This document shows positions 32,867 through 40,635 of a DNA stretch of 64,000 nucleotides, piece by piece. Numbering within the stretch: position 1 is the first letter of the stretch; each line of letters opens with the position of its first letter. The position numbers and the translations under genes are program-made. The stretch spans positions 1 through 64,000 of the forward strand of contig JANXBS010000018.1 in NCBI GenBank assembly GCA_025060615.1. Direction: 5' to 3'. A model generated the notes under the pieces. That model was not told the origin of the DNA. It was given only the letters and a program-made list of their open reading frames with translations, and searched no databases. Source of the DNA: Anaerolineae bacterium. Its GTDB lineage: Bacteria; Chloroflexota; Anaerolineae; DUEN01.

Positions 32867-32991
32867 CACGTTAGGCGAAACATTTCCGTCCCTTGTCAGC
32901 CCTCCATGGCGGCTGAGGATGACCTCTCAACATGGGTTCATTTAAATCCCGCTTTCTCTTTGGATTTCCCCAACGTGCTTCGCCTAACGTG
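32867..32991. repeat. 13-bp perfect inverted repeat pair flanking 99 bases
   Basis: CACGTTAGGCGAA at 32867-32879 is the exact complement of 32979-32991. The right copy covers the stop codon of the cysteine synthase gene. No transposase or coding sequence lies between, and no target duplication is evident. Confidence 0.6.
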
Positions 32992-34000
32992 TGGATGACC
33001 GGTCCAACCGGTCATCGAACAGCCCCAGGCTCAGATACTTCATGCCGCTATCGGGCAGCAACGCCACTACAACCCCCTCCTTCAGCTCGCGGGCGATCTG
33101 CAGGGCGGCATCCACTGCCGCTGCCGCTGATAAGCCAACGAACAGCCCCTCCTCCCTCGCCAGCCGTTGGGCCATCGCCAACGCTCGATTGGCCTCTGCA
33201 TAGATAGTGCGATCAGGCAGCGTGGGATCGTAGATGCCAGGGACAATGGACGTGGCCATATGCTTCAGCCCCTCGATCACCTGCAGCTCATCCGCTGGCT
33301 CCACAGCGATCAACTGCACCTGCGGGTTGTACTCTCGCAATCGCCGTCCTACCCCCATCAAAGTGCCAGAAGTCCCGATGCCAGCCACGAAGTGGGTGAT
33401 ACGTCCCTGCGTCTGCTCCCAAATCTCTGGCCCGGTGGTATCGTAGTGAGCGAGCCAGTTAGCCGGGTTATTGTACTGATCCGGATAGAAGTACTTCTCC
33501 GGCGACCCCGCTACGATCCTCCGGACCAACCGGATCGCTCCATCCGACCCCTCGAGCGGATCGCTCTCGATCACGCGCGCTCCGTAAGCCCGTGCCAGTT
33601 GCCGCCGTTCACGGCTGACATTGGCCGGCATCACCAACTCAACGCGATACCCTTTCACCGCGCCGATTAGGGCATAAGCGATCCCCGTGTTGCCGCTGGT
33701 GGCATCAATGATAATTTTGTCCGGCGTCAGCCGGCCGTCTCGCTCCGCTTCCTCGATCATGCGCAGCGCCGGCCGATCCTTCACCGATCCCCCAGGGTTA
33801 AACCACTCTGCCTTGACGTATAGCTCGACGTCGGCCGACAAGCCCTTTACGACGCGGGTGAGCCGAAACAGCGGCGTATGACCAATGCACCCTAAGACGC
33901 TCTGAGCCCGCGCCTCAGCCACGGCGATTTGAGCTGTCCGATTGCGAACCGACCCTCCATTGCGAGAGGCCGCTTCATCTCTCTCTCGAACTTTCAACAT
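32984..34000 (-). CDS. cysM: CysM-like cysteine synthase (PLP enzyme)
   Basis: A 338-residue fold-type II PLP enzyme. The PLP lysine is K74 in NPGGSVKDRP, the substrate loop is TSGNTG just after residue 100, and the phosphate loop is GIGTSGT. The family replaces the acetyl or phospho group of an activated serine with sulfide, thiosulfate or a protein-bound thiocarboxylate. The ATG at 34000 follows GAGGAGG; the longer open frame to 34075 would overlap the stop of the fusion gene by 4 bases. With a GG-tailed carrier and an E1 enzyme in the same cluster, it resembles the CysO-dependent CysM of mycobacteria more than a CysE/CysK system. No Mec-type peptidase is present. Its last codons form a 10-bp hairpin. 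Confidence 0.85.
   Translation of the reverse strand: MLKVRERDEAASRNGGSVRNRTAQIAVAEARAQSVLGCIGHTPLFRLTRVVKGLSADVELYVKAEWFNPGGSVKDRPALRMIEEAERDGRLTPDKIIIDATSGNTGIAYALIGAVKGYRVELVMPANVSRERRQLARAYGARVIESDPLEGSDGAIRLVRRIVAGSPEKYFYPDQYNNPANWLAHYDTTGPEIWEQTQGRITHFVAGIGTSGTLMGVGRRLREYNPQVQLIAVEPADELQVIEGLKHMATSIVPGIYDPTLPDRTIYAEANRALAMAQRLAREEGLFVGLSAAAAVDAALQIARELKEGVVVALLPDSGMKYLSLGLFDDRLDRSSTR
32994..33016. repeat. 10-bp hairpin in the 3' end of the cysM-like gene
   Basis: GATGACCGGT (32994-33003) and ACCGGTCATC (33007-33016) form a perfect stem with a 3-base loop just before the stop codon. No T-run follows on the minus strand, so it is not a classical terminator; it may stabilise or end the transcript. 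Confidence 0.5.
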
Positions 34001-34071
34001 GTCGCATCCCTCCTCAGAGGCACAATCGCTGTACCTCATAACTGGCTTTCGAAGCCCCTTCGCTCCCCCTT

Positions 34072-36198
34072 TCAACGCGCCAGCTCTCCGACTTGATGCC
34101 CGTTTTCTCCCACGGTAGACTGCCGCGACGGAAGCCCGCAGAACTGCTCATAGTCAATCAGCGCAGTAACGGTGGGATGATCGCCACAGACGGGGCAGTT
34201 CCTATTGCGCTGGACCTTCAGGATACGGAACGTCATGTCCAGCGCGTCGAACAGGAGCAGCTGGCCTATCAGCGGTTCACCGATCTGCAAGATGTACTTG
34301 ATTGCCTCCAGGGCTTGGATAGACCCGATGATACCGGGCAAGACGCCCAAGACGCCCGCCTCCGCGCACGAGGGCACTTCGCCCGGTGGCGGCGGGTCGG
34401 GATACAGACAACGATAACAGGGCCCGCCCCGCGTCGGATCGTATACGGTCACCTGCCCTTCGAAGATGAAGATGCTAGCGTCCACCAACGGCTTCTTCAA
34501 CAAAACACAGGCATCGTTGACCAGGTAGCGCGTCGGAAAGTTGTCCGAGCCATTGAGCACGAGATCATACTGCCTGATGATGTCGAGCGCGTTGCTGGAA
34601 TCGAGCAACACCCGATGGGGCACCACTTTTACATCGGGGTTGATCTCCCGCAAACGGTCCACCGCTGACTCTACCTTGGGCCGGCCGATATCGCTGTGGC
34701 CGTGTAAGATCTGCCGCTGCAAGTTAGATAGATCTACCGCGTCGAAGTCTACGATGCCGATAGTTCCTACGCCAGCGGCCGCTAGGTAGAGTGCCGCCGG
34801 AGATCCCAGCCCTCCTGCGCCGATCAACAGCACCTTGGCCTCCAACAGCTTGAGCTGCCCTGCCTCACCCACCTCTGGGATGAGGATGTGCCGGCTATAG
34901 CGGGTTCGCTGCTCATCGCTGAGGACCCGAGGGACCACGAACGGCAGGCCGCTGTTCTTCCACTGGTTAAACCCGCCGCGCATCGAGAAGACGTTGGTGT
35001 AACCCATCGCCTTCAGATCACGCGCTCCCAGCAGCGAGCGCACACCGCCGGCACAGTAGACCACAATGGGCGCATCCCGATCGGGCTGGATCTCCTCGAT
35101 ACGCAGTTCTAGGAAGCCGCGCGGCACGAAGCGCGCTCCCGGCACATGTCCTTGGACCCACTCGTCGCGCTCCCGCACATCGAGAACAGTTAGCCGCTCA
35201 CCCGCGTCTAACCGTCGCTTGACTTCATGCACGTCCAACTCGGGAACGCGGGCGCGCGCCTGGGCCAGGAGCTGATCGCGGGTAATCCGCCCTATTGGTG
35301 CAGAAACTGGCTCACTCGCCGGCAGAGGCTCTGCCGTGGTAACGGGAAGCCCGCATGGCCCCACGGCCGTCTGAGCGGTGCCAGCGGCGGCCACCGGCTT
35401 TTGGAGAGCACGCCGACTCCACTCGGCCCAAGAGCCCTCATAGTTGCGCACTCGCTCATACCCAGCCAGCCGCAGGGCCCAGTAGGTGTGCGCCGAGCGA
35501 GCGCCGGTCTCACAGTAAACGACCACCTCTCTATCAGGAGAGATCCCTGCCTCGGCGAAGTGACGACGCAGAGCCATCGGCGGGCGATAATGCTGAGCAT
35601 CGCCAGGGACGACATTCTCCTCCCAAGACAGGTTAATGGCGCCGGGTAGGTGTCCCCGCTGATATTCCGCGGGGGTACGGGTGTCCACTATCACCACCGA
35701 TGGGTGACCAAGGTGGGCGCTAATCCATTCGATAGTGGCTACTTTGCTTTCGTCAGGTTGGGCTCGGTATTCCGTTGGCTGTATAGTTGGCTCCTCCGTA
35801 GAGATCGCGCCGCCAGCTTTCAGCCACGCCCGCCATCCTCCATCAAGTAGGGAGACGCGCGCTTGCCCCCAATAATCTAGCAGCCAGGCCAACAGAGCCG
35901 CCAGCGGTCCGCCCGACTCGTCATAGACGACGACGAAGTCTTCACGCGATAGCCCCAACTCGCCTAAGACAGCTTCACCTACGGCTTGTGGGACCAGCTT
36001 GCCCGGAATCCCGTCCACGACAGTGAATAGCCGTCGCATATCTAGGGAGACAGCCCCCGGGATATGTCCCCATGGGTAACCGGACTGGAACTGCTCTAGG
36101 GCCGGTCGGACATCTATTATACGCAGGCCGGGATCGCTCAGATGCTCCTGAAGCCACCCAGCGTCTACTAACAAAGTAGTGCTCTGCCTTTCGCTCAT
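34072..36198 (-). CDS. Triple-rhodanese / ThiF-MoeB E1-like fusion protein
   Basis: A 708-residue cytoplasmic fusion. Residues 10-260 are a tandem sulfurtransferase: the first rhodanese has Asp93 (VVYDESGG) where the catalytic Cys would be, the second has C229 (VVYCETGARS). A third rhodanese (about 315-415) has C382 (VVYCAGGVRS). Residues 425-680 are an E1-like adenylyltransferase with GAGGLGS (460-466), zinc ligands CYRC (594/597) and CPVC (668/671), and C611. It should adenylate the GG tail of a sulfur carrier and then thiocarboxylate it from a rhodanese persulfide. The start overlaps the tusA stop as ATGA. MoeZ proteins carry one rhodanese C-terminal to the E1; here three precede it. Confidence 0.88.
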   Translation of the reverse strand: MSERQSTTLLVDAGWLQEHLSDPGLRIIDVRPALEQFQSGYPWGHIPGAVSLDMRRLFTVVDGIPGKLVPQAVGEAVLGELGLSREDFVVVYDESGGPLAALLAWLLDYWGQARVSLLDGGWRAWLKAGGAISTEEPTIQPTEYRAQPDESKVATIEWISAHLGHPSVVIVDTRTPAEYQRGHLPGAINLSWEENVVPGDAQHYRPPMALRRHFAEAGISPDREVVVYCETGARSAHTYWALRLAGYERVRNYEGSWAEWSRRALQKPVAAAGTAQTAVGPCGLPVTTAEPLPASEPVSAPIGRITRDQLLAQARARVPELDVHEVKRRLDAGERLTVLDVRERDEWVQGHVPGARFVPRGFLELRIEEIQPDRDAPIVVYCAGGVRSLLGARDLKAMGYTNVFSMRGGFNQWKNSGLPFVVPRVLSDEQRTRYSRHILIPEVGEAGQLKLLEAKVLLIGAGGLGSPAALYLAAAGVGTIGIVDFDAVDLSNLQRQILHGHSDIGRPKVESAVDRLREINPDVKVVPHRVLLDSSNALDIIRQYDLVLNGSDNFPTRYLVNDACVLLKKPLVDASIFIFEGQVTVYDPTRGGPCYRCLYPDPPPPGEVPSCAEAGVLGVLPGIIGSIQALEAIKYILQIGEPLIGQLLLFDALDMTFRILKVQRNRNCPVCGDHPTVTALIDYEQFCGLPSRQSTVGENGHQVGELAR

Positions 36199-36428
36199 GA
36201 TCTCGCTCCTTCGCCCGGCCGACTGAGTGTGATCACCCACTCCGGGGAGCCGGTCTCCCGGATCTGCCACTGGAATCCCAAACGCTTTGCCTGCGCTGGG
36301 ATCGTCTCCAGGGCGGGCGCGTGATCGGTGATAACCTCTAGGATCTCGCCCTTGGGCAAACGTTTCATCGCTTCCACTGCTTTCAACATTGGGTATGGGC
36401 AGATTTCGCCCCGGACATCTAGCTTCAT
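36195..36428 (-). CDS. tusA: TusA-family sulfur carrier protein
   Basis: A 77-residue protein with the TusA fold and the CPYP motif (C10) that carries persulfide sulfur. The ATG at 36428 has GGAGG 7 bases upstream; a TTG at 36434 would be an alternative. TusA proteins pass sulfur between sulfurtransferases and acceptors in the cytoplasm. Position between a rhodanese lipoprotein and the rhodanese-E1 fusion (ATGA overlap with the latter) suggests it relays sulfur to the fusion protein. Confidence 0.9.
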   Translation of the reverse strand: MKLDVRGEICPYPMLKAVEAMKRLPKGEILEVITDHAPALETIPAQAKRLGFQWQIRETGSPEWVITLSRPGEGARS

Positions 36429-36483
36429 CGGCAAACCTCCACATCCCTGTAGGGGCGAGGCGATGCCCCGCCCCTACGATCGA

Positions 36484-37437
36484 TCACCGCTCGATAGGTA
36501 GGTCAGTGCGGTTACCCCATTCCTCCCAGGAGCCGTCGTAGTTGACCACATTCTCAAAGCCTAACAACTGCGTCAACACGAACCAGGAATGTGCGCCGCG
36601 CACGCCGGTTTGGCAGTACGTGAACACCTGTTGGTCCGGCTGGACGCCCACCTGCTCATATAGCTTTCGCAGCTCAGCCACGGGTTTAAAGGTGCCGTCC
36701 GGGTTCATCTGGCTCGTCCACTCCAAGTTGATTGCGCCGGGGATGTGTCCACCGCGGGCGGAGCGGACATCCTGCCCAGTGTACTCCTTGGGACTACGCG
36801 CGTCCAGAATCACCTTATCCGGTTGCTTCAAGCTCGCCAATACTTGTTCCCAGGTGGCGCGAATCGCCAAATTCGGCTCACCGGCCTTATAAGTGGTCGG
36901 CGTCACATTTGGCACTTCCTGGCTTAGCTCCCGCCCCTCGGCAACCCACTTCTTGCGGCCTCCGTCAAGGACGCGCACATCCTGATGGCCGTAATACTTC
37001 AGCACCCAAAAGGCTCGCGTGGCAAACAGGCTATTCGAGTCATCGTAGAAGACCACCGTCGTCTGGTTGTCAATACCCAGCCGGCCCAACAAGGCCTCGA
37101 GCTGCTGGGCGGTGAGGATTTGCCCTTTAACCGGATCATCGGGGTTGGTGAGATCAGTCTGCCAGTTGACGTACACAGCGCCAGGAATGTGTCCTTCAGC
37201 GTACACTTCGGGCTTACTGCTCACGTCCACCAACCGGATGCCCTCTTTGTGCAGGTTCTCCGCCACCCAGTTCGTATCTACCAACACCTCCGGCTGAGCA
37301 ATGTCCGTGGTGACGGAAGTTTTCTCAGCAACAGCCGGATTGGCAGGTGCCTGTTCAACAGCAGCTGGTGTGACCGGCACTGCGCAAGCGGTCAACAACA
37401 CGGCAACTATGAGTAACCAGATTCTACTAAACTTCAT
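36484..37437 (-). CDS. Secreted rhodanese-type thiosulfate sulfurtransferase lipoprotein
   Basis: A 317-residue lipoprotein with a signal peptide (IWLLIVAVLL) and lipobox LTAC, so C18 is lipidated. It holds two rhodanese domains (about 50-170 and 190-315). Only the second keeps the catalytic cysteine, in TYCQTGVRGAH; the first has FYDDSN at that position, as in 3-mercaptopyruvate/thiosulfate sulfurtransferases. It acts on the outer face of the membrane, probably transferring sulfur from thiosulfate or a related compound. It is the next gene after the thiosulfate importer, separated by 342 bases, and 56 bases before tusA. Confidence 0.88.
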   Translation of the reverse strand: MKFSRIWLLIVAVLLTACAVPVTPAAVEQAPANPAVAEKTSVTTDIAQPEVLVDTNWVAENLHKEGIRLVDVSSKPEVYAEGHIPGAVYVNWQTDLTNPDDPVKGQILTAQQLEALLGRLGIDNQTTVVFYDDSNSLFATRAFWVLKYYGHQDVRVLDGGRKKWVAEGRELSQEVPNVTPTTYKAGEPNLAIRATWEQVLASLKQPDKVILDARSPKEYTGQDVRSARGGHIPGAINLEWTSQMNPDGTFKPVAELRKLYEQVGVQPDQQVFTYCQTGVRGAHSWFVLTQLLGFENVVNYDGSWEEWGNRTDLPIER

Positions 37438-37779: not shown

Positions 37780-39003
37780 CTACATCAGCCGTCGAATCAT
37801 CTGTACACCGAGAAAAGCGCCGATTGCCAGCGATCCCCCGAACACCCAACCGTTCAAGGCCAGGGATGGGATGGCTGAGAAAAACGCCCCAATGGTACAG
37901 CCAACTGCAATCCCTGCGCCGTATCCCATCAGAATACCGCCTCCTAGCGACTGGACATACCGCCGACGGTCAGCAGGTAGGCGGATTTTGAACTCGCCGG
38001 CCAGCACTGCCGCAAGCAAAGAACCTACAACCAGGCCCACGTCCAGCATCAAGCCGTGAGTCAGCAGGCCGCTCTCCATCGCTAGCGAGCATCCTGCGAT
38101 CTGGTCGACCCCTAGTAGAGGCCCGGCCGACAGCCCGACTAGACCTGCTAATGCATTCGCCCAGCGTGCCAACTCACCCGTCACGCCCCACGGATGGCGA
38201 TAGGCGTACTCGAACACGTTAAGCGCGCCCAGCCCCAACCCCGCCAGCGCCACCGGCCAAGCCCGGACGAAAATTACATGATAAAGAGCGTTCAGCCGTT
38301 CTCCGAATGTGAAACCAGCTGCCAGTGTCGGCGGCTCTGGAAACACGATACCGCTGCGAGCTTCCCACCACAATGCCAGCAAGTACAGTGCCCCTAGCAC
38401 CAACAGCGTCAGGCCAACTGCGCCGCCGTATCCCAAATAACGTGGTAGCCACACCACCGGCTGTCGCGAGATATGTACTTGCCACCACCAATTCCAAGTT
38501 TGGCTAGCCCCCCAGAGCCCGACTAGGATCCCACCCATCGCCACCCAGGAACCCACATACCCCTCGCCCATGCGATATAGAGAACCTGAGACACATCCGC
38601 CGGCTAATACCATCCCTAACCCAAAGAGCACACCCCCCACTACGAGGTGCCAGCCCAGCGGTACGACGTGCGCGTCAGGCGGCAGGAGGCCCAGAGCAGG
38701 GTTGGGGACCAGATTAGACATTACCAGAGTAAAGCCTAACGTCCCTACAGCCATGCCGGCCAGGATCGCTCGCATTACCCGCCCCTGCTGCAGTAAGAAC
38801 AGGTCACGGAAGGCCGACGCAAAGCAGAAGCGGCTGCGCTGCAAGATCATCCCGAATGCCAGGCCGAACAGCCAGAAAACCGCGAAGGCCCTATCTACAT
38901 AGCTAACCGCCGTAGCGACGAGTAGAGCCACGAACAAGATCGCAACGCCGGCGACTTGGCTTCGATTGAGCGATTTCGCCTCAACGCCCATAGACACAGC
39001 CAT
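37780..39003 (-). CDS. YeeE/YedE family thiosulfate transporter (TsuA-like)
   Basis: A 407-residue polytopic membrane protein with roughly 10 or more membrane segments. The family's conserved cysteines, which in TsuA relay thiosulfate through the pore, are present in the usual contexts: AGGCVSG (C137), IAGCSLA (C305) and AVGCTIG (C369); another Cys is C60. Thiosulfate import is therefore the best prediction, though some YeeE proteins are linked to other sulfur oxyanions or selenium. It starts 10 bases after the sulfur carrier gene, behind GAGGGGGG, so both are in one operon. Confidence 0.85.
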   Translation of the reverse strand: MAVSMGVEAKSLNRSQVAGVAILFVALLVATAVSYVDRAFAVFWLFGLAFGMILQRSRFCFASAFRDLFLLQQGRVMRAILAGMAVGTLGFTLVMSNLVPNPALGLLPPDAHVVPLGWHLVVGGVLFGLGMVLAGGCVSGSLYRMGEGYVGSWVAMGGILVGLWGASQTWNWWWQVHISRQPVVWLPRYLGYGGAVGLTLLVLGALYLLALWWEARSGIVFPEPPTLAAGFTFGERLNALYHVIFVRAWPVALAGLGLGALNVFEYAYRHPWGVTGELARWANALAGLVGLSAGPLLGVDQIAGCSLAMESGLLTHGLMLDVGLVVGSLLAAVLAGEFKIRLPADRRRYVQSLGGGILMGYGAGIAVGCTIGAFFSAIPSLALNGWVFGGSLAIGAFLGVQMIRRLM

Positions 39004-39013
39004 GGCACCCCCC

Positions 39014-39286
39014 TCATCCTCCTGCCATCGCAGGCACGATAGAGATGCGATCTCCCTCCGCTACCGGCGTCTCTTTGCCCTGTAATGTGCGGATCTCATC
39101 CTCGTTCACATAGATGTTGATGAAACGTTTGAGCTCGCCGTTTTCGTCTAACAACCGATCCCGGATGCCCGGAAACCTGGCCTCTAAGTCTTCGATCACG
39201 CTCAAGACCGTTGTACCTGAAGCCTGCACTTTCGATTGGCCACCGGTGAGCCGGCGGAGAGGAGTTGGAATGTTTACTGTTACCAT
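39014..39286 (-). CDS. MoaD/ThiS/CysO-like sulfur carrier protein
   Basis: A 90-residue ubiquitin-like beta-grasp protein ending in the diglycine tail MAGG, which is adenylated by an E1 enzyme and then thiocarboxylated. [10 protein letters not shown] and [13 protein letters not shown] fit the MoaD family. CysO (cysteine), MoaD (molybdopterin) and ThiS (thiazole) share this fold. Adjacent thiosulfate transport, a rhodanese-E1 fusion and a CysM-like enzyme favour a CysO role. It is the first gene of the sulfur cluster, preceded by GGAGGG and a structured leader. Confidence 0.88.
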
Positions 39287-39371: not shown

Positions 39372-39416
39372 AAATAAAAGGGACTCACCGAGGCCACTGG
39401 CCATGCGATGAGTCCC
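39372..39416 (-). terminator. Terminator (possible attenuator) upstream of the sulfur operon
   Basis: On the minus strand an 8-bp outer stem (39416-39409 with 39387-39380) and a nested GGCC/GGCC stem (39402-39399 with 39395-39392) are followed by TTTTATTT (39379-39372). It lies 86 bases before the carrier start and 400 bases after the end of the upstream minus-strand gene. Confidence 0.7.
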
Positions 39417-39472
39417 GCACACGATCTAGTATACATCTCATGTGGCGCGATGAGATGATTTCACCTCATCGC
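39405..39472 (-). promoter_or_regulatory. Competing pairing element in the sulfur operon leader
   Basis: In the minus-strand RNA the 8-mer GCGAUGAG (39472-39465) can pair perfectly with CUCAUCGC at 39454-39447, forming an upstream hairpin. It can equally pair with an identical CUCAUCGC at 39412-39405, inside the 5' arm of the terminator, which would block termination. This is the layout of an attenuator or riboswitch expression platform. A TATACT at 39433-39428 could instead be a promoter that bypasses the upstream part. Confidence 0.45.
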
Positions 39473-39816
39473 CAGATAGGAAAGCAAATCAATGCCTGAT
39501 CCGAAAGACTTAACATGACGCAGAGATAAGTCGGCGTGACCCATCGCATCTGTCAAACGCGGGGGCACTCGAGACATCCCTAGACCCTTCTTAGGGACGC
39601 CCGACTGCTCCCGCTATAGACAGATGCACGTCAACGTAGTCAACAAACGCCGACCTCTTAGCCGCAAAGGACTTCCTCTTCCGTGAGCTTTGATAGAAGC
39701 GTTAATACTATACCTTAAATGCCGTATATTGTCAAATCTATCTGTGGAAATCACCGAAACAGCTCGCCAGCAACTCTTGGACAATAACCCCGCGCTTACT
39801 ATCCCTACGCTCAGCG

Positions 39817-40635
39817 CTAGGCCAAAGCCTGCTCTAGAGCTTGATCCCAAAATTCGACAGTCCCATCTTGTAACAAGACGACATGCTCTTCACTTGCCGC
39901 CTGAGCCCCGCCCTGTGTGGCATCCTCCCCTGCTACGACAGGCACGGCCAGATAACCTGCTTTGCGGAGCAAGGCAGCGCGCCGGCGGGCGCGTTCTACA
40001 TCCCCCCGATCAACAGTAGCTGAGACTTCGATGGTCAACCATACCTCAGGCAACTCCGGCTTCTCTCGCAAGTGCCCTCGCACCAGCAGATCCAGCAATC
40101 GCAGCTCATCCAATTCAGCTTCTGCCAACCTCTTTTCGACCTGCTCTTCGATCTCATAAAAAGCCACAGCCCTAACGCGGCGTAAGAAACGCCCAAAGTA
40201 GCTATGAGCCTTCTCCCGATAACGACGCTCTAACTGATCCCCCACCAGTGAATCAAGCTTTCTTTCCATACGATCTTGCCTGGCTATAGAGGCACGTAGA
40301 GTTTCTTCGGTGCGCCGCTGCGCCTCCGCCAACTCCTCCACCCGCTGCTCCGTGCGCCGCTGCGCCTCCGCCAACTCAGCCAAGGCCACTTCCAGCCGAC
40401 TAACCCGCTCTTCGGTGCGCCGCTGCGCCTCCGCCAACTCCTCCACCCGCTGCTCCGTATTCCTCTGAGCGATCACCAAGTCACTTACCACGGCCCGCAG
40501 GTTATCGAAGTCCTCGCGGCGCACAGCCAGCTCAGCACGCATATGCTCTTCAATGGCTTCCACTATTTCTAGCATAGGAAGCCGTAACTCTTCTGGCAAC
40601 TTCTGTAGAGCAGAAGCATAACGCACAGCCGTCAT
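39817..40635 (-). CDS. Coiled-coil protein with C-terminal nuclease-like domain
   Basis: A 272-residue protein. Residues about 45-125 are a coiled coil made of near-identical repeats (EQRVEELAEAQRRTE). The C-terminal ~140 residues contain a helical part (EKAHSYFGRFLRRVRAV) and then LLDLLVRG and VWLTIEVSATV, spaced like the PD-(D/E)xK nuclease core, but with Ser in place of the usual Lys; KAGYLAVPVVAG follows. Such proteins are common in cyanobacteria and Chloroflexota and have no firm function; DNA binding is a guess. The ATG at 40635 is 50 bases after a good promoter (TTGGCA-17-TATAAT). Confidence 0.6.
   Translation of the reverse strand: MTAVRYASALQKLPEELRLPMLEIVEAIEEHMRAELAVRREDFDNLRAVVSDLVIAQRNTEQRVEELAEAQRRTEERVSRLEVALAELAEAQRRTEQRVEELAEAQRRTEETLRASIARQDRMERKLDSLVGDQLERRYREKAHSYFGRFLRRVRAVAFYEIEEQVEKRLAEAELDELRLLDLLVRGHLREKPELPEVWLTIEVSATVDRGDVERARRRAALLRKAGYLAVPVVAGEDATQGGAQAASEEHVVLLQDGTVEFWDQALEQALA
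40310..40440. repeat. Coding repeat units in the coiled-coil gene
   Basis: An identical 26-base core recurs at 40310-40335, 40352-40377 and 40415-40440. Spacings are 42 and 63 bases, both multiples of 21 (one heptad), so gain or loss of units would keep the frame and the coiled-coil register. Confidence 0.85.

What the first reader, a model, noticed from the sequence alone, without database searches (positions are those of the whole stretch)
39372..39472. Attenuator-like leader before the sulfur carrier and thiosulfate importer operon
A good terminator (nested stem, TTTTATTT) sits 86 bases before the carrier gene. Its 5' arm contains CTCATCGC, and an identical CTCATCGC lies upstream; a single GCGATGAG further upstream can pair with either. 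One choice forms a harmless hairpin and the other would break the terminator. A short frame starting at 39441 (18 codons, third codon UGU Cys) ends inside the terminator. An additional 7-bp hairpin follows. Which signal is sensed is unknown; I do not recognise a SAM, T-box or other named riboswitch. It could be a new cysteine- or sulfur-responsive element.
Basis: partly seen in the sequence, partly recalled or inferred. Interest (0 to 1): 0.72.

Follow-up and report, generated by a model that had tools for sequence, protein, structure and literature searches.

The report
Cysteine-codon attenuator before cysteine genes
The RNA in front of this cysteine-making operon encodes a tiny peptide that ends Cys-X-Cys, so ribosomes that stall there for lack of cysteine probably stop a downstream terminator from forming; the principle is a known one, found here as a conserved family in Chloroflexota bacteria.

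Summary
The leader runs from a promoter at 39735-39707 (-), start site about 39700, to the cysO gene at 39286. It carries a 17-codon leader peptide (39667-39614, MRLRGRRLLTTLTCICL*), and the regulatory codons are the two Cys codons just before its UAG. Strand 1 (the Cys codons, 39628-39619) pairs with strand 2 (39550-39538). Strand 2 can pair instead with the 5' arm of the terminator (strand 3, 39416-39401). Thirty-six related leaders, all Chloroflexota, all precede cysO (27) or cysK (9). All have the in-frame Cys-X-Cys, 34 with UGY NNN UGU NNN UAG, and both alternative helices covary. More divergent cysO leaders keep Cys codons (CSCMGRA*, CCICCRRAP*, CCCTCSMRAR*) but lose other sequence, which argues against a riboswitch aptamer. 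No Rfam family matches. Best reading: ribosome-mediated, Cys-tRNA-sensing transcription attenuation of cysteine biosynthesis. This is a known kind of mechanism and a new family of it, not a new riboswitch. There is no expression evidence.

The parts
39707..39735 (-). sigma-70-type promoter TTGACA-17-TATAGT; transcription start about 39700
   Evidence: 11 of 12 consensus positions; 33 of 36 homologous leaders have a match of at least 10/12 here, against 0.6% of shuffled sequences
39672..39679 (-). Shine-Dalgarno-like AGAGGAAG before the leader peptide
   Evidence: sequence; recognisable ribosome-binding sites are patchy across the family
39614..39667 (-). leader peptide ORF TTG...TAG, MRLRGRRLLTTLTCICL*, two Cys codons at 39628-39626 and 39622-39620
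   Evidence: in-frame Cys-X-Cys in all 36 leaders, UAG two codons after the second Cys in 34; third-codon-position bias in the largest cluster
39619..39628 (-). strand 1: UGCAUCUGUC, the Cys-Ile-Cys codons, pairs with 39554-39546
   Evidence: P1b covariation
39559..39614 (-). hairpin P2/P3 between strands 1 and 2 (GCGGG 39614-39610 with CCCGC 39563-39559, variable apical hairpin)
   Evidence: 100% of cells paired, one pair with changes on both sides
39538..39550 (-). strand 2: GAUGCGAUGGGUC, pairs with strand 1 or with strand 3
39417..39537 (-). unconserved spacer (121 nt here, 63-156 nt in the family), with a window-specific hairpin at 39473-39444
39401..39416 (-). strand 3: GGGACUCAUCGCAUGG, 5' arm of the terminator and antiterminator partner of strand 2
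   Evidence: 2:3 duplex -19.4 kcal/mol; covariation
39372..39390 (-). strand 4 of the terminator (39390-39380) and U tract UUUUAUUU (39379-39372)
   Evidence: terminator hairpin -26.8 kcal/mol; family median -19.3
39014..39286 (-). cysO-like sulfur carrier (90 aa, ends ...AGG)
   Evidence: ThiS family E 5.8e-17; best PDB match 3dwg_C, E 7e-25, which I identify from memory as M. tuberculosis CysO
37780..39003 (-). YeeE/TsuA-like sulfur (thiosulfate) transporter
   Evidence: Sulf_transp E 1e-62; TsuA models match below their cut-offs
36484..37437 (-). two-domain rhodanese (3-mercaptopyruvate/thiosulfate sulfurtransferase type)
36195..36434 (-). TusA-family sulfurtransferase
   Evidence: TusA E 8e-19
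34072..36198 (-). rhodanese-ThiF/MoeZ-type activating enzyme (ORF opens at 36444; likely start near 36198)
   Evidence: ThiF E 3e-86, three rhodanese stretches; start inferred from reading frame
32984..34075 (-). cysteine synthase (CysM-like)
   Evidence: TIGR01138 cysM E 2e-115, 385 bits against a cut-off of 394

Best explanation
It is a ribosome-mediated transcription attenuator that senses charged tRNA-Cys. Transcription starts near 39700 and a ribosome translates the 17-codon leader peptide. When Cys-tRNA is scarce the ribosome stalls on one of the two Cys codons and covers strand 1. Strand 2 is then free, pairs with strand 3 when it emerges, and blocks the terminator, so the cysteine-biosynthesis genes are transcribed. 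When Cys-tRNA is plentiful the ribosome reaches the UAG and leaves. Strand 1 then pairs with strand 2, strand 3 pairs with strand 4, and transcription stops before cysO. The long spacer between strands 2 and 3 may give the ribosome time to finish before strand 3 is made. Shown here: the reading frame and its conservation, the alternative helices and their covariation, the terminator, the promoter, and the exclusive link to cysO/cysK. Inferred: translation of the frame, stalling, the direction of the response, and the role of the spacer.
For: All 36 leaders have an in-frame UGY NNN UGU, and 34 read UGY NNN UGU NNN UAG. All have an upstream ATG, GTG or TTG in that frame, at a position shared within each group. 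The first Cys codon varies only UGC/UGU. In the 12-leader Caldilineaceae cluster, differences fall mostly at third codon positions (70/157/263), and clusters share peptides, e.g. MREQRQATYLKTCSCP*. Divergent cysO leaders keep Cys-rich ends: TCSCMGRA*, CCICCRRAP*, CCCTCSMRAR*. 18 of 30 cysO loci have such a frame, against 3.2 +/- 1.6 in shuffles, and the 11 of these outside the covariance-model set have the same strand 2/strand 3 complementarity. P1b covaries, 3 of 5 pairs with changes on both sides. The antiterminator helix covaries in 8 of 11 pairs over 40 distinct sequences, and own arms pair better than swapped arms in 20000 of 20000 trials. Masking strand 1 raises mean P(2:3) from 0.17 to 0.56; it rises by more than 0.1 in 23 leaders and falls by as much in none. 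Gene context is cysO 27, cysK 9, other 0.
Against: There is no expression, ribosome-profiling or mutational evidence. In the window's own leader equilibrium folding does not form 2:3 even with strand 1 masked when the full 5' part is included, because other structures compete, although the 2:3 duplex itself is -19.4 kcal/mol. The start codon here is TTG, and Shine-Dalgarno matches are weak in much of the family. Two leaders (L081, second L105) lack the immediate UAG. The third-position bias was not seen in the f1 cluster (51/37/41), and the open-frame control did not separate frame 0 (32/36) from frame 2 (26/36). The terminator arms in the covariation set were picked partly by their match to strand 2, which inflates the percentage of paired cells.
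Confidence: 0.88

Rival explanations
1. A new metabolite riboswitch (cysteine, O-acetylserine or another sulfur metabolite) whose aptamer is P1/P2 and whose expression platform is the 2:3 versus 3:4 switch.
For: A structured, conserved, covarying domain upstream of cysteine genes with a strongly conserved, often unpaired UGUCNNUAGCGG and a classic expression platform. I held this view myself until.
Against: The conserved unpaired bases are exactly the codons UGU NNN UAG. Divergent leaders lose UAGCGG but keep or multiply Cys codons. The variable part of P1 is exactly the non-Cys codon between the two Cys codons.
Confidence: 0.05
2. One reading: the local GCGATGAG/CTCATCGC hairpin at 39473-39444 and the 39441 frame form the switch.
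For: The complementarity exists; the local copy could pair with strand 3 at -14.8 kcal/mol.
Against: Both elements lie in the unconserved spacer. The local hairpin pairs with itself in every fold computed. Relatives lack it.
Confidence: 0.02
3. The nascent Cys-X-Cys peptide itself senses a metal or a sulfur species and arrests the ribosome (arrest peptide), rather than Cys-tRNA supply.
For: CXC motifs can bind metals; PMC9973294 (listed, abstract only) reports translational control by a nascent protein in copper sensing.
Against: The X residues and upstream sequence vary freely between families, some leaders have four or five Cys codons in varied arrangements, and the regulated genes make cysteine.
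Confidence: 0.04
4. The hairpin is a plain terminator of the upstream gene (39817-40635, same strand) with no regulatory role.
For: The upstream gene is on the same strand and the terminator is strong.
Against: A promoter lies between them, and the element precedes cysO or cysK in all 36 leaders.
Confidence: 0.01

Closest known systems
[quoted passage not shown]
   Same: short ORF with Cys codons near its stop, upstream of cysteine biosynthesis genes; inferred Cys-tRNA sensing
   Different: no conserved terminator was found there (Rho was suggested); here there is an intrinsic terminator with covarying antiterminator, in another phylum, mostly with Cys-X-Cys-X-stop rather than runs of Cys
Polycysteine leaderless short ORFs of mycobacteria (Canestrari 2020, PMC8764745, not held; described in PMC9031893 and PMC13236596)
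   Same: cysteine-responsive uORF control of cysteine genes
   Different: those are leaderless ORFs and are described as acting on translation; here the ORF has a 5' UTR and transcription termination is the likely output
uORFC-8-2 motif, cysS of Rhodobacterales (PMC8632094)
   Same: uORF with two Cys codons in the first stem, then an intrinsic terminator
   Different: Cys codons are tandem, the gene is cysS, the group is Alphaproteobacteria; sequence and structure relatedness not tested
trp/his-type classical attenuators (general knowledge)
   Same: the 1:2, 2:3, 3:4 logic
   Different: strand 2 lies about 60 nt past the stop codon, beyond a separate hairpin, and strand 3 a further 63-156 nt away

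Membership tests
Ribosome-mediated (leader-peptide) transcription attenuator | short ORF with codons for the pathway's end product near its end | tested here: met
   Cys-X-Cys in 36/36 leaders, UAG two codons later in 34
Ribosome-mediated (leader-peptide) transcription attenuator | regulatory codons lie in a strand that pairs with the antiterminator strand | tested here: met
   P1b covariation
Ribosome-mediated (leader-peptide) transcription attenuator | mutually exclusive antiterminator and intrinsic terminator before the first gene | tested here: met
Ribosome-mediated (leader-peptide) transcription attenuator | stalling at the codons releases the antiterminator strand | tested here: inconclusive
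   holds on average in silico, but not in the window's own leader; no experiment
Ribosome-mediated (leader-peptide) transcription attenuator | leader ORF is translated and responds to amino-acid starvation | not testable with these tools
   needs ribosome profiling or reporters
Any Rfam riboswitch | match to a covariance model at the gathering score | tested here: not met
   no match for the window; nothing credible at E <= 10 for the leader or at E <= 1 for eight homologues
T-box | match to the T-box covariance model | tested here: not met
   the specifier loop and UGGN bulge were not examined separately
Metabolite-binding aptamer (new class) | ligand binding by the RNA | not testable with these tools
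   conservation is explained by codons, so not assumed
uORFC-8-2 motif (cysS, Rhodobacterales) | tandem Cys codons and location upstream of cysS | tested here: not met
   Cys codons are separated by one codon in the 36 leaders; genes are cysO/cysK

The most novel reading that the evidence does not exclude
The leader is more than a codon counter: the conserved P1/P2 domain or the nascent Cys-X-Cys peptide directly senses a sulfur metabolite or metal, so that one element reads both Cys-tRNA and another signal before choosing between the two routes to cysteine (CysO and CysK).
Probability: 0.07. Interest if true: 0.8.

Novelty: new member of a known kind. Interest (0 to 1): 0.43.

Why it matters
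It gives a concrete, testable regulation model for cysteine biosynthesis and sulfur uptake in a largely uncultured phylum, linking the sulfur-carrier route (CysO, activating enzyme, CysM) and the CysK route to one signal. Earlier cysteine leader peptides in Actinobacteria lacked recognisable terminators; here the complete classical machinery is present and covaries. It is also a caution: a leader with strong covariation and conserved unpaired bases can pass for a riboswitch when the conserved bases are codons. I found no earlier report of leader-peptide attenuation in Chloroflexota, but one relevant survey (Lopatovskaya 2010) was not held, so priority is not established.

Tried and rejected
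1) Riboswitch hypothesis, held through, dropped when the conserved UGCAUCUGUCNNUAG was seen to be Cys-Ile-Cys-X-stop and this held in all relatives. 2) Pattern search with two mismatches: too loose, control counts as high as real ones. 3) Phylum-wide search with model R2: only class members; the one outside hit (G398, L110) reads as coding DNA and was taken as chance. 4) Non-Chloroflexota matches of the pattern scan: all below 26 bits, while the true ones are at 42 or more; taken as chance. 5) Rfam at permissive thresholds: only implausible microRNA/snoRNA matches plus one genuine tRNA gene in a neighbouring locus. 7) Equilibrium folding of the window's leader alone: inconclusive for the stalled state. 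8) An outer helix P0 enclosing the domain was seen by eye in several leaders but not tested. 9) Open-frame control: frame 2 was nearly as often open as frame 0, so that count was not used as evidence.

Full report
Observation. The region lies on the minus strand, upstream of a 90-aa sulfur carrier (39286-39014). The terminator, the repeated CTCATCGC, the 18-codon frame at 39441 and the extra hairpin are all present, and the leader folds much better than shuffled sequence.

What is conserved. A DNA search of 40 relatives found two blocks in the same order in two close genomes: 39642-39533 and the terminator, about 39421-39376. A covariance model of the first block found further members across several families of the class. 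A pattern scan of about 85,000 named genomes, scored with a second model, gave 23 loci at 42 bits or more, all Chloroflexota (Caldilineaceae, Caldilineae, Litorilinea and unplaced Chloroflexota). The other loci, from other groups plus one Anaerolineales record, scored below 26 bits or not at all. A phylum-wide search found nothing credible outside the class. Rfam has no match.

Gene context. I assembled 36 distinct leaders. Every one is followed by cysO (27) or cysK (9). In the window the operon is cysO, a YeeE/TsuA-like transporter, a rhodanese, a TusA protein, a rhodanese-ThiF activating enzyme and a CysM-like cysteine synthase. The best PDB match of the carrier is 3dwg_C, which I identify from memory as CysO of M. 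tuberculosis, the protein-bound sulfide donor for CysM. So all members sit before genes of cysteine synthesis.

The turning point. The first block has strongly conserved, often unpaired bases, UGUCNNUAGCGG, and I first took it for an aptamer. Read in frame it is UGC AUC UGU CNN UAG: Cys-Ile-Cys-X-stop. In-frame peptides in all 36 leaders bear this out, for example MRTGSAIQPRGWQSLTSLTCICP*, MRIGIACQRKSWSALTSLTCICL*, MREQRQATYLKTCSCP*, MTQPLVCICL*, and in the window MRLRGRRLLTTLTCICL* (39667-39614, TTG start behind AGAGGAAG). The Cys codons are fixed (UGC/UGU at the first, UGU at the second) while the codon between them is Ile, Ser, Leu or Asn. In the largest cluster differences concentrate at third codon positions (70/157/263); the smaller f1 cluster does not show this, and a count of open frames did not separate the real frame from frame 2. 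The decisive test was independent: cysO loci outside the model's reach. Eighteen of 30 cysO loci have a Cys-X-Cys or Cys-Cys leader ORF, against 3.2 +/- 1.6 (maximum 8) in shuffles. Several are very different...TCSCMGRV*...CCCTCSMRAR*...CCICCRRAP*. They keep Cys codons but not UAGCGG, as expected if codons and not an aptamer are under selection. Many of the loci without one have cysO close behind another gene. Upstream of cysK, 10 of 27 loci gave a hit; six to eight of these look real by eye.

The RNA switch. Strand 1 (the Cys codons, 39628-39619) pairs with GACAGAUGC (39554-39546). The 3' part of that segment and its continuation, strand 2 (39550-39538), can pair over about 12 bp with strand 3, the terminator's 5' arm (39416-39401; -19.4 kcal/mol). 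Across the family P1b is paired in 88% of cells, with three of five pairs changed on both sides. The 2:3 helix is paired in 89% of cells, six of eleven pairs changed on both sides. With divergent leaders added (40 distinct sequences) eight of eleven pairs are changed on both sides, and the counts of changed cells and pair types exceed all 500 shuffles and every slid register. Arms swapped between leaders never pair as well as own arms in 20000 trials. The arms were chosen partly by complementarity, which inflates the percentages; the swap test and the changes on both sides are less affected. Every leader has a T-tailed terminator (median -19.3 kcal/mol) and 33 of 36 a promoter of at least 10/12 upstream.

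Mechanism. Folding transcripts cut just after strand 3 gives mean P(1:2) 0.65 and P(2:3) 0.17 without a ribosome, and 0.02-0.06 and 0.56-0.57 with a ribosome footprint on the Cys codons; P(2:3) rises by more than 0.1 in 23 leaders and falls by as much in none. That is the classical attenuation logic: stall for lack of Cys-tRNA, free strand 2, antiterminate; otherwise 1:2 forms and transcription ends. In the window's own leader the fold does not show 2:3 even with strand 1 masked, because other pairings compete at equilibrium; only with the 5' part cut short does it appear (P 0.40 against 0.00). This is the main weak point and could be a limit of equilibrium folding. The long spacer (63-156 nt) may be a time window for the ribosome to finish; that is inference.

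Comparison. Leader peptides with Cys codons are known upstream of cys operons in Actinobacteria, without clear terminators (PMC1262725); as leaderless polycysteine ORFs in mycobacteria (described in PMC9031893 and PMC13236596); and in the uORFC-8-2 motif upstream of cysS in Rhodobacterales (PMC8632094). A 2022 riboswitch review contains no mention of cysteine (PMC10043782). My literature searches found no report in Chloroflexota; one survey (Lopatovskaya 2010) was not available. I therefore class this as a new member of a known kind.

Verdict. Confident (0.88) that this is a Cys-codon, ribosome-mediated transcription attenuator.

Noticed in passing
window 39473-39444 (-): A perfect 11-bp hairpin repeats the strand 2/strand 3 sequence (GCGATGAG...CTCATCGC) within the unconserved spacer; it is not seen in relatives and may be a decoy or a recent duplication.
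   Followed up: partly
L003 about 2109-2282: In genome G003 the transporter and rhodanese genes are missing between cysO and tusA, and a remnant of the rhodanese C-terminus (..NYDGAWEEWGDRLDLSIE) remains, as if a deletion had removed them.
   Followed up: no
window 34072-36444 (-): The open frame of the rhodanese-ThiF protein extends upstream through the whole tusA gene (36195-36434) in another frame; the likely start is the Met near 36198, which would overlap the end of tusA.
   Followed up: no
L162, L164, L169, L182 upstream of cysO: Families f45 and f41 have leader peptides with four or five Cys codons (CCCTC, CCCICC, CCICC), suggesting a stronger or more graded cysteine response.
   Followed up: partly
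L105 (G285:C82), positions about 4049-3969 and 1652-1575, minus strand: One contig carries two copies of the attenuator about 2.4 kb apart, one before cysK and one before cysO.
   Followed up: partly
G000:C17:15302-15553: The window's genome has a second, more distant sulfur-carrier gene (45% identity), and no close cysK was found.
   Followed up: no
L192, L202, L205 (cysK loci of f4, f31, f39): More distant cysK leaders also show Cys-X-Cys peptides (TCLCS*, NTCSCL*, ITCLCPRRRR*), so the regulon is wider than the covariance models detect.
   Followed up: partly
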